Shown here piece after piece: positions 12,190 through 18,255 of a DNA stretch of 64,000 bases. The translations under genes and the position numbers were made by a program. The notes under the pieces were generated by a model. It was not told the origin of the DNA. It saw only the letters and a list, made by a program, of their open reading frames with translations, and searched no databases. The stretch comes from Annona cherimola (taxonomy: Eukaryota > Streptophyta > Magnoliopsida > Magnoliales > Annonaceae): NCBI GenBank assembly GCA_030490835.1, contig CM059974.1:1991501-2055500 (forward strand), written 5' to 3'. How positions within the stretch are numbered: the first letter of the stretch is position 1; every line of letters starts with the position of its first letter.

Positions 12190-12198
12190 GCGCCCGGA

Positions 12199-12336
12199 GG
12201 GTTTTTTGCATGGTAAACCCTCTAACTTTGGCCAATTGCTTTCCAAACCCCGAAGTTTGGCCGTTTTCTTATTAAACCCTGCGAACTTTCAGCTTTTGCA
12301 TTTTGAACCCCGGGGCATAACGGCGTTTCAGAACAC
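12199..12336 (+). repeat. MULE left terminal inverted repeat
   Basis: 138 bp, matching 18109-18246 in inverted orientation with one difference. Contains GTAAACCCTCTAACTTTGGC and CCCCGGGGCATAACGGCG. In Mutator elements TIRs carry the promoter and transposase-binding sites; here it would drive the plus-strand transposase. Confidence 0.95.
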
Positions 12337-12525
12337 CGTCAAATGGAGTGAAATGTCCAAAATGTCCTCACTAAAAAACAAAACTGAACCCTAGCAGATA
12401 CCCCAGACGGAAGGACGATAATCTGAAAAACCCCAAATCAAAAATACCCAAATCGAAAACGAATTCGAAATCCCTAAATCAGAAACCCCAAAGAAGAATC
12501 CACGAACGAGATCGAGCTCCGGAGT

Positions 12526-12645
12526 GTTTCTCGGTGGGTCGTCTCCATCACAGTCGCTGTGTTGCTCAGTGGGCTGTCTTCCTCACAGTCGCTGCGTTTT
12601 TCGGTGGGTCGTCTTCCTCACTGCCGCTATGTTTCTCGGTGGGTT
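12526..12645 (+). repeat. 35-bp tandem repeat near the MULE left end
   Basis: About 3.4 copies of a 35-bp unit starting GTTTCTCGGTGGGTCGTC at 12526, 12561, 12596 and 12631. The period is not a multiple of three. Subterminal repeats in transposons often bind transposase; that role here is inference. Confidence 0.85.
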
Positions 12646-12869
12646 TTGCTGGCTTACACTAGATGGAAGATGACAATACAACGGTTGAATGAAGGTATAT
12701 ATATGCTGTCAATTTAAGTTTAAAAAATATTTATGACTGTAATGGATGATGACAACAACACACGGACATTGTTAATTCTTGTGATGGGGTGGAATGCAAT
12801 GAAGACAGTGGACAATGATGTGTTTTTTGTCGTGGTATAGGAGTGGTCCCAAATGGAATAAAAAAGCCC

Positions 12870-13975
12870 GGTCTTGTCTAATTTTTGGAATGCAGTGGTG
12901 GTCTCATTTAATTAAAAAAGAGGATGCTTGGATGCTTTGTCTTTGAGTGGTTGCCCGCCTCATTTTTGTGCTCCAATCAATGTTCATGCGTATGGGTTAG
13001 CCACAAATGAATGACGAATTGGCTCGACTAATCCAAGCAGTGAATGACGAATCATCTGTGCAACCAATCTCATCTACAGATATTGAGTCATCCAATGAAA
13101 TACAACTTGACTCAGTCGAGTCGCATGGCTCCTTTCCAAATCCAAGAAACTCACCACCTTGGTCCGATTGAATCCTCCCCACATCCTTCTTTTCCTCCAA
13201 GATGGGCAGAGAATTATCCCTTGACAGAGGAGAAGGTGGTACTACCCCCATCCTTCTCTCTGTCCTAGAAAAATGAGCCTGGATTCTCAGAGTAGAAGGG
13301 CTACTGGAAGGGCACAAGTGGGTGTGTGTTGCAGTCCTTGATTGAGGTACACGGCAGTACACATGCTGAGCATTGACTGATGAAGGGCTGGAAGCCACTA
13401 GAGAGACCTTGCTGAATTGCCTGAAGATTTGAAAATCTCTAACATTGGTGCAGCCGGGCTTCATTGCTGGAGAGCTGTGTATCCATTCCTCCAATGTTCG
13501 AGCTATTGTGACCTTGGCATCCTGATAATTCTCCTTCTTTTTTTGGTGCAATGAGTGATACAAAGGTTGATTGTTGGAGCAGCCATTGCTGCCCTTGGCT
13601 GATCCTTGCAGGTCATTGGGTTTCTTAAGACAGCACAAGAGGCCCCCCATTTTCCTTTCTATGATGAGAGGGATAGCTAACCATGCAGAAGAATCCCATG
13701 AATCCTTCACTGAATCTTTGGAATAAGAAATAATGGAGTGGCTTAATTGTCCTAGTGGTTGGGGCTTTTTAATTAAAGAAAAAATGAGGCGGGCAACCAC
13801 TCAAAGACAAAGCATCCAAGCATCCTCTTTTTTAATTAAATGGGACCACCACTGCATTCCAAAAATTAGACAAGACCACTCAAAGACATCTATGTCATGT
13901 CCTTTCATCAGCTAGAGCGAGAGAGGCATGTTTTCTCGAATTTAATTCTTCATTTGTGGCTAACCCATACGCATG
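12870..13975. repeat. Scrambled inverted duplication inside the MULE
   Basis: Block A (12870-12967) recurs inverted as A' (13780-13877) with one or two differences. Block B (12985-13011, CATGCGTATGGGTTAGCCAC) recurs inverted as B' (13949-13975). The order on the plus strand is A, B, spacer, A', B'. A simple palindrome would read A, B, B', A', so an extra rearrangement has taken place. The spacer between the copies holds the unknown frame 12997-13800. Confidence 0.8.
12997..13800 (-). CDS. Unrecognised 267-codon open frame in the MULE, possible captured gene fragment
   Basis: An uninterrupted minus-strand frame from MVARLIFSLIKK to SRANSSFICG, long for this AT-rich window. It lies in more GC-balanced DNA than its neighbours and between inverted copies of block A/B. 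The product would be Ser-rich with a CC pair (GGLLCCLKKPND), a Pro/Ser stretch (CPSSSPSTLRIQ) and an acidic tail (SLDDSISVDEIGCTDDSSF). No family recognised, no signal peptide, no clear membrane segment. It could be transduplicated host exonic sequence, as in Pack-MULEs, or a chance frame; the opposite strand also gives protein-like stretches interrupted by stops. Start and any introns are unknown. Confidence 0.35.
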   Translation of the reverse strand: MVARLIFSLIKKPQPLGQLSHSIISYSKDSVKDSWDSSAWLAIPLIIERKMGGLLCCLKKPNDLQGSAKGSNGCSNNQPLYHSLHQKKKENYQDAKVTIARTLEEWIHSSPAMKPGCTNVRDFQIFRQFSKVSLVASSPSSVNAQHVYCRVPQSRTATHTHLCPSSSPSTLRIQAHFSRTERRMGVVPPSPLSRDNSLPILEEKKDVGRIQSDQGGEFLGFGKEPCDSTESSCISLDDSISVDEIGCTDDSSFTAWISRANSSFICG

Positions 13976-14106
13976 AAGTTACTATCATTTAATTCTCATA
14001 AGTTAACAAATAAGATAACTTCTCATATTGAAGTTACTATCATTTATTTATGTTGCATCGTGTAATGTTCATATAATTCAGAAAGAAAAATATGTAATAG
14101 TATACT

Positions 14107-16437
14107 TTGCCTTCCCATAATTTATTTGACCTGAAGCATATGATGTGCAGGCATACTGTTGGGAATGAAAATACTAAAAATAGGCATGATGATTGGATGG
14201 AATGGTATTATGAGGTGATGATGCGGGAAATAGAGCGGGAGAATGCTGAGACAGAAAATGTAAAAGATAGAGAAAGGAAACAAGCGGCAGTAGAACCCGA
14301 GGAAGACGATGCTTGTGACAGTGACGACTCGTTTGTCAAGGTTCATGAAGGTGATGACGGAAATGTTACATCAAACCATGACTATGATCCCTATTTTGAT
14401 ATTATGGATCCATATCTACATATCAGACTTCAATTTGAGGATAAAAAGCAATTGGAATTGGCCATTCGACAGCATGCTATTGTTAATGGGTTTGACGTGA
14501 AGTTTTCAAAGAATGAATGCTACCGACTGACCCCCATCTGTAAAGCTGATGGTTGCCCATGGAGATTGCATGCATCGTGAAAGGGTACAGGGGCCGCATT
14601 TGTAATCAAAACCTACAACAACGTGGAATATACGTGATCAGTTGCTAAAGGTAGTGGAAATAAGTCTGCAAATAAGGTTTGGATTACCACCACTCTTGAG
14701 AAAGACCTTAGAGTCAACAACAACTTAACTGTGAAGCAGTTAAATAACAATATGCATTCAAAATATGGTCTAACTTTAAATTATCACAAGATTTGGAGAA
14801 GCAGAAAGCAGGCTATGGGTTCCATTCATGGTACTTCAGATGAGTCCTTTGCATGCCTCCCTTCTTTCTTTGCAACAATATCGAGGACAAATTCAGGCAC
14901 AATCACACACATCAAGACTGATGGAGACCACCACTTTCAGAGAGCATTTTTGTGTATTGATGCCTGTAAGAGAGCATTTCAAGTTGGTTGTATGTCATAT
15001 ATTGGATTAGATGGTGCATTTCTCAAAGGCGATTTCAAAGGGAGCTTGCTAACTGCAATCAGTAAGGATGTTGAAGGACAAATCATGCCTATTGCTATCG
15101 GTGTTGTCGAATACGAGTGCAGTAGTAGTTGGACATACTTCTTATCACTTTTGAAAGATGCAATTGGAGATGGAGAATATACCATAATGTCTGATCGTCA
15201 AAAGGGTTTAATGATGGCAGTGGCCAGAGTGTTCCCAACTTCTAAGCATCGTTATTGTATGCGACACTTACGTGGAAATTTAGCTAGGAAGGAGTGGGGA
15301 AAGAGTGACTTGGTTAAGAAATTATTTTGGGTAGCCAGTAAAGCATATACCCAAGCCGAGTTCAAGGTTCAAATGGCAAGATTAAGAATAATTAGCCCAG
15401 AGGCATGCGAATGGATGGAGCGGACTGATCCTTCACACTGGTCACAGGCATTTTTTCCGGATAATAGTCCATGTTCAGCCACCGATAACAACTTCGTTGA
15501 AGCATTCAATGCTTGGATTGAAGATGCAAGACACATGCAAATCATTCAGTTGTTTGACAGCTTCAGGACAAAAGTAATGGAGTGGTTCAATAAAAGGAGT
15601 ATTGAAGGCAATTCTTCCAATGCACTTTTGTCAGGGAAATGCCTAAGGAATTTGGAGGCAATTGGACAACATGGAAGGAGGGAAACTTTCCTACATTGTG
15701 AGAATGAAGAGTTTGAAGTCTCCTTTGGTGAGAACAGGCATGTTGTTCAATACTCACAAAGGAAATGCAGTTGCAGGCAGTGGCAGTTAGAAGGAATGCC
15801 ATGTCTTCATGCTTTTCGAGTTATGCTGTGGAAGCGGGAGGACCCAACTTCTTATTGTAAATGGTTTCATACTATGGACGCATACCGGAAGACTTATAGT
15901 CATGGATTCCATGCTATGCCAAGCCAACTTTTTTGGGAGCCAGATATAGATAGTAAGTTTTTCATATTGACTTAGTTCTTGCTTGTTATCTGGTTAAGTT
16001 TTTTCTTACTTAATAGTATAAATTATCTAATTAGTTTTTTGTCATTCTTAGATAGGGTAGTGCTCCCACCCGATATTCAAAAAACAGTAGGCCGAAAGCA
16101 AACTGAAAGAAGGAGAGGGCAAGAAGAAGGACCATCTCAGCATGTTAAACGAACAAGTGGGAAGATACATTGTAGTATGTGTAAAGGGGAAGGCCATAAT
16201 AGAAGAGGGTGTCCTATTACAAAGCAAGGTTCCACAAGCCGACCACCATCACCAATGAGAACCTCACCATCACACTCTCAAAGTCAAAATTCCACGCAAA
16301 CAGAAATGTCACAAGCCTCCCGTGGTCCATCATCTTCACAACCAATTCCACAACCGATTCAACGGAAAATGAAGACTCTAGCTCGAAAGAGAACATTTTT
16401 TTGCAGCAGCCACACAATGACAACTCATGTAGTTTAG
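14107..16437 (+). pseudogene. MULE transposase (MuDR type), two premature stops
   Basis: The catalytic protein of the element. An acidic N-terminal region is followed by a MuDR-type DNA-binding domain (CKADGCPWRLHAS). Then comes the MULE transposase domain with YIGLDGAFLKG (first Asp), IMSDRQKGL (second Asp), CMRHLRGNL and ATDNNFVEAFNAWI (probable Glu). A SWIM zinc finger follows (CSCRQWQLEGMPCLHAF). Exon 1 ends at 15952, a 99-nt intron spans 15953-16051, and exon 2 (16052-16437) encodes a CCHC-like knuckle (CSMCKGEGHNRRGCP) and a Ser/Pro-rich tail. In-frame TGA codons at 14578-14580 and 14635-14637 break the DNA-binding domain. The second falls where related MULEs have the Cys of an HTC motif. 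The true start is unclear: a candidate splice acceptor lies near 14150, so a 5' exon may exist upstream. Confidence 0.9.
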
Positions 16438-17078
16438 ATGTTTTTATATATCTAAATTATGAATTTTTGATTAAGATAGTTAAGTTAGTTAATACCTCAC
16501 AATATCCTATGTAGCATTATTTTGTGATGGATATGGACATGGTGTATGAATTTGTTGACTACTTGTATTTGCTTCACAAATAGACTTTAGCTAATCTTTT
16601 GTGTAAAAGACACTTCAATTTATTCGCCTTCATCAGATGTTACAGGGTACAGTAAATGCATCCTTCGAGATGTAGCCATAACATTATCAATTGCATCCTA
16701 TGTACAGGGTAAAATTACTACGAGTATTTCTTTGCTATCTTGGGTTGGATGCAAGCTGCCTACAAATTTTTGCATATCGATTCTTTGCTATCTTGATAGT
16801 GCTTCTTAAATAGAAAGTCTATTGCTACTGCTGCAGCTGGGCATTCCAAAATAATTCATTTTCCCATGTGTGCTTCAAAGACATTGGCTTATTTGTAGCA
16901 ATTGTATTAAATTAAAGACTATCAATTAAATAGGAACCCAATGGGAAAGATAAACAGTCCATTGGTCATTCAAGAAAGAAAAATATAAGTCTCCATACTA
17001 CATGTTCAACAAAAAACATTACATTAATACATCAAAAATATCCATACTCCAACAAACATATTATCAAACAAATACAAT
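16438..17078. other. MULE intergenic region between convergent genes
   Basis: About 640 bp between the transposase stop and the stop of the minus-strand GRF gene. It should contain the 3' ends of both transcripts. No other feature seen. Confidence 0.6.
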
Positions 17079-17960
17079 TCATCCCTTCATATTAGGGGAA
17101 CTGTAAACATTAATATTTATAGTCAGGTTGCTCATTCCCTTAGTAATTTCATCAGCTTGGCTTGTTTTCTTCATTTCGGCTAATTCTCTCTTCACATTTT
17201 CTAATTCTACCCACAGGCTGCTACCGCTGCATTCAGTTTTGACCTCCATTATACTTTCTTCTGCCAACGACTCTTCCACATTGAGTTCATATTCATCACA
17301 CCAATGAAAGAAATTACAATTCTTTATATCCTGCATCAGAAATATTTATGATTAATTACAATAGTAGCTCAATATATATGACTAGCATGAATATGTTCAA
17401 TTACAATTATAGGTAATATTTTATTCTTACCCGTTTCGGGCAGCGATAAAACACCTATTTGGATTCTTTTTTGTCCTTGATAAGAACACTTTGCACATTC
17501 CCATTCCACATGGACAGTGAATTTTCTTGATCCAGCTAGGAATATTCCTGTTTCAACAAATTTAACACAAACTAACATGTTGTAAAAAAAAATATTCAAC
17601 TCAATTCAATGGATCATTACATGAGTTGCAAGAGATGTATTTAAACCAAAGTAAGCAGTCATGTTCAAAATCTAACCACAAATGTTTTTAACTGGAATCT
17701 GGATGAATACATTTCAACAAAACTTGAAAAATCCTGAAAAACTTTCATAAATGGTAAAAATCAGAAATGCCTTTAAGATAAACTCTCATGTTTGTAGGGA
17801 TCCGAATTTCCATATTACTGAGTACAACAGCGGCTCACATACCCATTTGAAAAATTCAACAGACCGTTGAATGTCATTTTTGCTGAAACAACGGTACGGA
17901 GAAATAAAATACGTCGCCCGAATTCTGAAAATAAAATACAAGATACCTGTTGGCATCCAT
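17079..17960 (-). pseudogene. GRF-type zinc-finger/coiled-coil protein of the MULE, frameshifted
   Basis: Three exons on the minus strand: 17947-17960 (ATGGATGCCAACAG), 17431-17547 and 17079-17330, all with GT-AG introns. Exon 2 encodes WIKKIHCPCGMGMCKVFLS and TKKNPNR. Read one frame over, it continues VFYRCPKR into exon 3 NCNFFHWCDE. Together these are the Cys pattern and FFxWxDE end of a GRF zinc finger. Exon 3 goes on with an acidic/heptad stretch (LWVELENVKRELAEMKK), a likely coiled coil. The frame change after NPNR (around 17456-17458) implies loss of one base, probably a G from AGGG. The intact form would be about 128 residues. Small GRF proteins (At4g04775-like) are common in plant genomes; their function is unknown to me. 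It would be transcribed from the right TIR. Confidence 0.82.
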
Positions 17961-18108
17961 TCTTGATCACGCGTCAGCTCAGCAACTCTTCTAAGTGCGT
18001 CTTCTTTTTACTTGGAAATGAACTGACGATTTCTTATAAGGGATGGGTTTTTACAAGGCCATTTTTGGGATTTCCAAAAAATTGAACGTTCGAGCCCTTT
18101 GAATACGC

Positions 18109-18246
18109 GTGTTCTGAAACGCCGTTATGCCCCGGGGTTCAAAATGCAAAAGCTGAAAGTTCGCAGGGTTTAATAAGAAAACGGCCAAACTTCGGGGTTT
18201 GGAAAGCAATTGGCCAAAGTTAGAGGGTTTACCATGCAAAAAACTC
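18109..18246 (-). repeat. MULE right terminal inverted repeat
   Basis: Inverted match to 12199-12336 over 138 bp. Lies about 150 bp upstream of the GRF gene start, so it probably supplies its promoter. Confidence 0.95.
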
Positions 18247-18255
18247 GCGCCCGGA

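What the first reader, a model, noticed from the sequence alone, without database searches (positions are those of the whole stretch)
12199..18246. MULE carrying a GRF zinc-finger gene opposite its transposase
The element has 138-bp TIRs with one difference and a perfect 9-bp TSD. It holds two convergent genes: a MuDR-type transposase and a small GRF zinc-finger/coiled-coil protein whose first exon starts just inside the right TIR. This mirrors the two-gene layout of maize MuDR (mudrA/mudrB), with a GRF protein in the mudrB position. If the pair is conserved in other copies, the GRF protein may be an accessory factor of the element rather than a host gene. Coordinates, TSD and exon structure are read directly; the accessory role is inference.
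Basis: partly seen in the sequence, partly recalled or inferred. Interest (0 to 1): 0.85.

Follow-up and report, generated by a model that had tools for sequence, protein, structure and literature searches.

The report
Jumping gene with conserved zinc-finger partner
In this plant genome a large group of Mutator-type jumping genes carries, facing the transposase gene, a small zinc-finger gene that has been kept by selection for a long time, so it is probably a working part of the transposon rather than a stray host gene.

Summary
In detail: a 6,048-bp Mutator-like element (12199-18246) with 138-bp TIRs (one difference) and a 9-bp TSD carries a MuDR-type transposase (+) and, convergent to it, a three-exon GRF zinc-finger/coiled-coil gene (-). 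Its decisive test was run in the host genome, and the accessory reading passed. Of 124 transposase loci from two capped searches, 102 have a GRF match 0.5-2.5 kb downstream on the opposite strand; none of the listed GRF matches within -8 to +16 kb is on the same strand. The pairing spans transposases only ~38% identical. Complete elements of three subfamilies share TIRs, TSDs and GRF exon structure. GRF and transposase trees agree, and GRF shows purifying selection, though weaker in one comparison. Inserts in the left spacer differ between copies; the GRF side mostly stays. Among the 150 best MULE-domain hits, all from other lineages, none has a listed convergent GRF nearby; 3 have a co-oriented one. 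A convergent second gene is known in MULEs (mudrB, PMD genes); no conserved GRF partner was found in our literature searches. The mechanism (single-strand DNA binding in transposition) is inferred. Only one plant genome was available.

The parts
12190..12198 (.). Left target-site duplication GCGCCCGGA
12199..12336 (+). Left 138-bp TIR
12199..12522 (+). Left ~324 bp retained in the four 547-bp non-autonomous derivatives (probable cis-required end)
12524..12644 (.). 35-bp minisatellite (3.5 copies) in the left subterminal region
12870..13877 (.). Left spacer with 98-bp inverted arms 12870-12967 / 13780-13877; the left arm is shared by relatives, the right arm was not found as a second copy in them
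12997..13800 (-). 267-codon open frame in the spacer; much of this region is shared with L066 but not with the L061-type copies; possibly a captured host-gene fragment (origin not established)
14140..15952 (+). Transposase exon 1 (DBD_Tnp_Mut, MULE, SWIM); start codon inferred; in-frame TGA at 14578 and 14635 in this copy
16052..16437 (+). Transposase last exon with a CCHC-like zinc knuckle (exon join inferred from splice-site match)
17079..17330 (-). GRF gene exon 3: second half of the finger (CNFFHWCDE), predicted coiled coil, C-terminus
17431..17547 (-). GRF gene exon 2: first half of the finger; one-base frameshift in this copy
17947..17960 (-). GRF gene exon 1 (MDAN, with R completed by exon 2), 149 bp from the right TIR
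18027..18246 (-). Right ~218 bp retained in the 547-bp derivatives; upstream of the GRF start codon
18109..18246 (-). Right TIR
18247..18255 (.). Right target-site duplication GCGCCCGGA

Best explanation
The element is a decayed copy of a two-gene MULE family. Shown: GRF gene and transposase form a conserved convergent pair across several diverged MULE lineages of this genome, with conserved exon structure, congruent trees and purifying selection on GRF; the GRF gene is thus an old resident gene of these elements. Inferred: each gene is transcribed inward from a promoter in or next to its own TIR, as in MuDR; the GRF protein pairs through its coiled coil and uses the GRF finger to hold single-stranded or nicked DNA (or a repair factor) at cut transposon ends, gaps or target joints, helping insertion or repair of transposition intermediates. 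Conserved accessory gene: about 0.9. The specific DNA-binding/insertion role: about 0.4.
For: 102 of 124 transposase loci have a GRF match 0.5-2.5 kb downstream on the opposite strand; no listed GRF match within -8 to +16 kb of them is on the same strand. Complete W, A and B elements with TIRs and 9-bp TSDs share three coding exons and intron phases; lineage D has an intron at the same place in the finger (model by eye). PF06839 at 3.3e-12 to 9.5e-11 in W, A, B, D. Trees of both genes give ((W,V),(A,B)); Mantel r 0.94, 0 of 5,000 permutations, n=27. Whole-gene GRF pN/pS 0.37-0.38 between W, A, B, bootstrap limits 0.24-0.59. Inserts in the left spacer differ between copies while GRF stays. Profile match to the NEIL3 GRF (E 2.4e-6); GRF of APE2 binds ssDNA and contacts PCNA (PMC6122073, passages).
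Against: No expression or functional data. 22 of 124 loci have no GRF match close by (5 of these have one 9.9-13.8 kb away, still convergent). In exon 3 between groups A and B, GRF dN/dS is 0.61 against 0.07 for transposase, and GRF dS (0.38) is far below transposase dS (1.46): weaker constraint, and possibly recombination between subfamilies; within groups the GRF ratio is 0.42-0.73 (W, V, A), as loose as expected of decaying copies. Of 6 fetched W relatives with the GRF gene, 2 have a stop in it. The 547-bp derivatives show only that the gene is not needed in cis. Only one plant genome was available.
Confidence: 0.75

Rival explanations
1. The GRF protein is a conserved element gene but works as an anti-silencing or transcription factor for the element (as VANC does for Hiun), not in the DNA-joining steps.
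For: Second genes of plant MULEs can be anti-silencing factors (VANC, as cited in PMC6446971, passage); a small zinc-finger/coiled-coil protein could serve. All positional and selection evidence fits equally.
Against: The GRF finger of APE2 binds single-stranded DNA and PCNA, which points more to DNA transactions; no other Pfam family passed its cut-off in the four GRF proteins.
Confidence: 0.3
2. The GRF protein is a self-limiting regulator of transposition, kept because elements with it burden the host less.
For: Inward antisense orientation could let it interfere with transposase output; the layout is kept in many copies.
Against: Purifying selection on the protein argues that the product itself matters; selection for self-restraint is thought to be weak (general reasoning, no call).
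Confidence: 0.12
3. One-off capture of a host gene by a single element or recent family.
For: Elements of this family do carry inserts in the left spacer, one with a clear EDR1/CTR1 domain.
Against: Present beside transposases ~38% identical, with an intron at the same place in the finger and the convergent layout; purifying selection. Three GRFs fetched from places without a listed transposase nearby are of other types.
Confidence: 0.03
4. Chance neighbourhood of two abundant repeat genes.
For: Both are multicopy.
Against: Order, strand and distance are fixed; 0 of 150 best PF10551 hits of other lineages have a listed convergent GRF within 8 kb; own arithmetic gives about 0.1% per locus by chance.
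Confidence: 0.01

Closest known systems
Maize MuDR (mudrA/mudrB)
   Same: MuDR-type transposase, long TIRs, a small second gene at the other end; in MuDR the TIRs serve as promoters and mudrB is required for integration (PMC8224964, passages). The convergent layout of MuDR is recalled.
   Different: Second gene here is a GRF zinc-finger protein. mudrB is described as of unknown function and found only in Zea (PMC3276141, passages); homology of the two could not be tested.
MUDR / MUDRAVI2 group MULEs with an antisense plant mobile domain (PMD) gene
   Same: Recurrent extra gene antisense to the transposase in plant MULEs (PMC6446971, table passages).
   Different: The extra gene is PMD, not GRF; the term GRF does not occur in the held main text of that paper.
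Arabidopsis VANDAL/Hiun (VANA, VANB, VANC)
   Same: Plant MULE with element-specific extra proteins, one an anti-silencing factor (passage).
   Different: VANB and VANC were not compared here; the GRF proteins show no Pfam family over cut-off other than GRF.
GRF zinc fingers of APE2, NEIL3, TOP3A and small plant GRF proteins
   Same: PF06839 over its cut-off; profile match to NEIL3.
   Different: In APE2 and NEIL3 the finger is part of a repair enzyme; here it is a ~127-aa gene of its own with a coiled coil, inside an element. TOP3A and the small plant proteins (At4g04775-like) are recalled, not tested.

Membership tests
Mutator-like elements (MULE), plant MuDR type | MULE/MuDR transposase domains | tested here: met
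   PF03108, PF10551, PF04434 over cut-off
Mutator-like elements (MULE), plant MuDR type | Long TIRs | tested here: met
   138 bp, 137 identical; 155 and 158 bp in the group A and B elements. No TIR pair was found in the L070 stretch
Mutator-like elements (MULE), plant MuDR type | 8-11 bp TSD | tested here: met
   9 bp in window, L061, L063, L065; 9 bp in L068 and L069 with the TIR ends shifted by 1-3 bases (L069 by eye); 9-11 readable in L064; none exact in L066
Mutator-like elements (MULE), plant MuDR type | Catalytic DDE residues intact | not tested
   not examined residue by residue
MuDR two-gene organisation | Second gene convergent to the transposase, starting next to the opposite TIR | tested here: met
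MuDR two-gene organisation | Second gene homologous to mudrB | not testable with these tools
   no mudrB sequence was at hand; similarity of role is inference
MuDR two-gene organisation | Both genes transcribed from TIR promoters | not testable with these tools
   no expression data
GRF zinc-finger proteins (PF06839) | GRF profile over curated cut-off | tested here: met
   42-47 bits against 25.9 for the open-frame W, A, B, D proteins; the window copy's own exon is below cut-off (17.8 bits)
GRF zinc-finger proteins (PF06839) | Single-strand DNA binding | not testable with these tools
   reported for APE2

The most novel reading that the evidence does not exclude
A whole division of plant MULEs is a two-component system: transposase plus a dedicated GRF zinc-finger protein. 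Many of the small stand-alone GRF proteins annotated in plant genomes would then be transposon accessory factors, doing with a known single-strand-DNA-binding fold what mudrB does in maize by unknown means, and recruited by MULEs at least twice (convergent in the lineages studied here, co-oriented in another).
Probability: 0.45. Interest if true: 0.78.

Novelty: new variant of a known kind. Interest (0 to 1): 0.64.

Why it matters
How Mutator elements insert, and why some need a second protein, has stayed open; mudrB is described as a protein of unknown function restricted to Zea. A conserved second gene with a recognisable DNA-binding fold, held by several MULE lineages of one genome and with open-frame relatives present, makes the question testable. 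It could also explain a class of small plant GRF proteins as transposon genes, which matters for annotation.

Tried and rejected
Protein database: no relatives of the GRF protein, singly (4 candidates, none scored) or as a 4-sequence alignment (644 candidates, none scored); it seems to hold little plant protein, so other plants could not be tested. PDB search with the helicase-like fragment gave nothing. A genome search with the window's spacer did not complete, so the origin of the 267-codon frame is open.

One-off capture and chance neighbourhood were rejected (see rivals). An early draft said that the window, L066 and L061-type copies hold three unrelated spacer inserts; in fact window and L066 share most of theirs, and L066 has the EDR1/CTR1 piece besides.

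Literature, all in the same open-licence library: 'GRF zinc finger' with MULE and transposon, 0 papers; with Mutator-like, 0; zf-GRF with transposase, 0; GRF-type with transposable element and plant, 2; PF06839 with transpos, 0; GRF, MULE, transposase and zinc finger as whole words, 2. These 4 papers were seen only as listings and not opened. At4g04775-like gave one listing. Subscription papers and Repbase are not covered.
Full report
What is there. The window holds one complete Mutator-like element, 12199-18246. Its TIRs match at 137 of 138 positions and it is flanked by GCGCCCGGA on both sides. On the + strand is a MuDR-type transposase with DBD_Tnp_Mut, MULE and SWIM domains and a last exon with a zinc knuckle (seen by eye). 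On the - strand, starting 149 bp inside the right TIR, is a three-exon gene for a GRF finger and a coiled coil (the coiled coil is judged by eye). This copy is defective: the transposase has two in-frame TGA, and GRF exon 2 is one base short, so the frame breaks in the finger.

Other copies. The host assembly (792 Mb; the seven largest sequences seen are 73-129 Mb; a plant by its gene content, species not identified) could be searched. The TIR gave 475 candidates, of which 40 were scored. I fetched seven stretches with close transposases and/or TIR pairs. Five have both TIRs in the stretch (L061, L063-L066) and all five carry the GRF gene convergent to the transposase; in L065 the transposase is internally deleted. 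L067, with one TIR in the stretch, also has the GRF gene. L062 lacks the last transposase exon and the GRF gene within its stretch, and no GRF match lies within 16 kb downstream of it. GRF exons 2 and 3 are 97-99% identical to the window's. The GRF frame is open in L063, L064, L065 and L067; L061 and L066 have a stop. TSDs are exact in L061, L063, L064 and L065, not in L066.

Deeper relatives. The transposase search listed 98 matches; three were second pieces of listed elements, leaving 95 loci. GRF matches were pooled with exon-2 rows of the same genes dropped (113 places). 75 of 95 loci have a GRF match on the opposite strand 0.5-1.9 kb downstream: 19 of 22 at 80% identity or more, 51 of 62 at 60-80%, 5 of 6 at 40-60%, 0 of 5 at 38%; five others have one 9.9-13.8 kb downstream, also convergent. 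The 0 of 5 was a limit of the query: a stretch around one of them, L070, holds a GRF gene in the same place, and a GRF search with that protein found it beside all 5. A search with the L070 transposase listed 70 matches: 34 distinct loci of this and more distant lineages, 10 second pieces and 26 rows already in the first list. 27 of the 34 have a convergent GRF 0.9-2.5 kb downstream: 19 of 19 at 70% or more, 2 of 5 at 55-70%, 6 of 10 at 40-55%. Together, 102 of 124 loci (95 + 34 - 5 shared). No listed GRF match within -8 to +16 kb of any of these loci is on the same strand (which took the pooled 113 and 26 places). All lists are capped by the tool (95 of 817, 64 of 1,073, and 150 of 438 candidates scored; one search's table is also cut), so these are fractions of the best matches, not of all copies. 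33 of the 113 pooled GRF places have no listed transposase nearby; the capped transposase list may explain many, and at least one (L065) lies in an element whose transposase is internally deleted. I could not tell how many of the 33 are free-standing.

Complete elements of two ~72% groups were fetched, one each: A (L068, TIRs 155 bp, TSD ACTTCCATG) and B (L069, TIRs 158 bp, TSD TCTGACGCC, read by eye). Their GRF genes begin MAERR and MAEKR where the window's begins MDANR; intron 1 is in phase 2 and intron 2 in phase 0 in all three. Lineage D has an intron at the same place in the finger but starts translation in exon 2; no TIR pair was found in its stretch (gene model by eye). All four proteins score 42-47 bits against PF06839 (cut-off 25.9).

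Selection and co-divergence. I used 27 loci with both genes in hand; loci without GRF in the stretch, second fetches of the same copy, L058 (GRF cut short) and L065 (transposase deleted) were left out. Amino-acid distances of the two genes correlate at r 0.94 (0 of 5,000 permutations reached it). Both trees give ((W,V),(A,B)); in the GRF tree W and V have weak support (51, 78), A, B and AB 95-100. Whole-gene GRF pN/pS, one copy per group, is 0.37-0.38 between W, A and B with bootstrap limits 0.24-0.59, and 0.47-0.68 against D. In exon 3 alone the dN/dS medians are 0.23 (W-V), 0.32 (W-A, W-B), 0.26-0.28 (V-A, V-B) but 0.61 between A and B, where transposase has 0.07; within groups W, V and A they are 0.42-0.73. 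GRF dS between A and B is 0.38 while transposase dS is 1.46, so the two genes did not diverge alike; recombination or codon constraint may explain it.

Controls. The spacer between left TIR and transposase differs between copies: L061-L065 and L067 share, in whole or part, one segment with a helicase-like frame (PF00271, weak, 0.047); the window and L066 share another (12337-13323 and 13501-13717 of the window) with an unassigned 267-codon frame; and L066 has, between those two pieces, a stretch with an EDR1/CTR1 domain (PF14381, 5.6e-28). The source genes were not located. So these elements take up other DNA on the left, while the GRF gene on the right stays in all but one of the copies fetched. 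The 150 best PF10551 hits in the genome (of 1,099 candidates) belong to other lineages, none coinciding with the 124 loci; none has a listed convergent GRF within 8 kb, and 3 have one ~1.5 kb downstream on the same strand. That control is limited by how far my GRF queries reach. Of 17 PF06839 hits, 16 have no listed transposase of these lineages nearby; four of them were read: two join a CCHC knuckle to GRF (L072, L073), one resembles a repair-enzyme GRF (L071, from recall), and one (L074) lies beside one of those 3 other MULEs.

Activity. Four 547-bp (one 546) derivatives consist of the first ~324 and last ~218 bp of this family; by eye three have exact flanking repeats of 10-11 bp and one an imperfect repeat. 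So the family has been mobilised in trans and its genes are not needed in cis.

How it may work. Shown: a conserved, convergent gene pair within TIRs, with selection on both. From the literature: in MuDR the TIRs are promoters and mudrB is needed for integration (PMC8224964, passages); GRF of APE2 binds single-stranded DNA and contacts PCNA (PMC6122073, passages). Inference: the GRF protein serves the element at DNA ends or gaps during insertion or repair, or alternatively protects it from silencing. The data do not separate these.

What is known. MULEs with an extra gene, also antisense, are known (mudrB, PMD, VANB/VANC, mutB; PMC6446971, passages). That survey, which collected sequences of 1,631 MULEs, does not use the term GRF in its held main text. 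My searches showed no paper on a GRF partner among the titles listed; the few listed papers were not opened, and subscription papers and Repbase were out of reach. I therefore call it a new variant of a known kind.

Noticed in passing
L066:1199-2600; L061:1000-2500; window 12337-13893: The left spacer of transposase-bearing copies carries different segments: window and L066 share one, L066 has an added EDR1/CTR1 piece, L061-L065 and L067 share another with a weak helicase-like frame. This looks like capture of host fragments by full-length, not only Pack-type, MULEs.
   Followed up: partly
G000 C2:122074149-122074695, C2:764467-765013, C5:74834125-74834671, C1:126451572-126452117 (L013, L015, L029, L002): 546-547-bp deletion derivatives made of ~324 bp left and ~218 bp right end of this family, three with exact 10-11-bp flanking repeats; all have nearly the same breakpoint, so they form one mobile MITE family.
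   Followed up: yes
G000 C1:79566464/79568314, C3:25544626/25546388, C3:74002145/74000491: In other MULE elements a GRF match lies ~1.5 kb downstream of the MULE domain on the SAME strand (3 of the 150 best PF10551 hits): perhaps a second, independent recruitment of GRF.
   Followed up: partly
window 12870-12967 and 13780-13877: 98-bp inverted copy of a spacer segment inside the window copy, not found as a second copy in L061-L067: a possible trace of repair by template switching.
   Followed up: partly
groups A and B: GRF exon 3 synonymous divergence (0.38) is much lower than that of transposase (1.46) between the same elements.
   Followed up: no
L069:6946-7475: The GRF first intron of the group B element holds a tandem array of five 105-bp units.
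   Followed up: no
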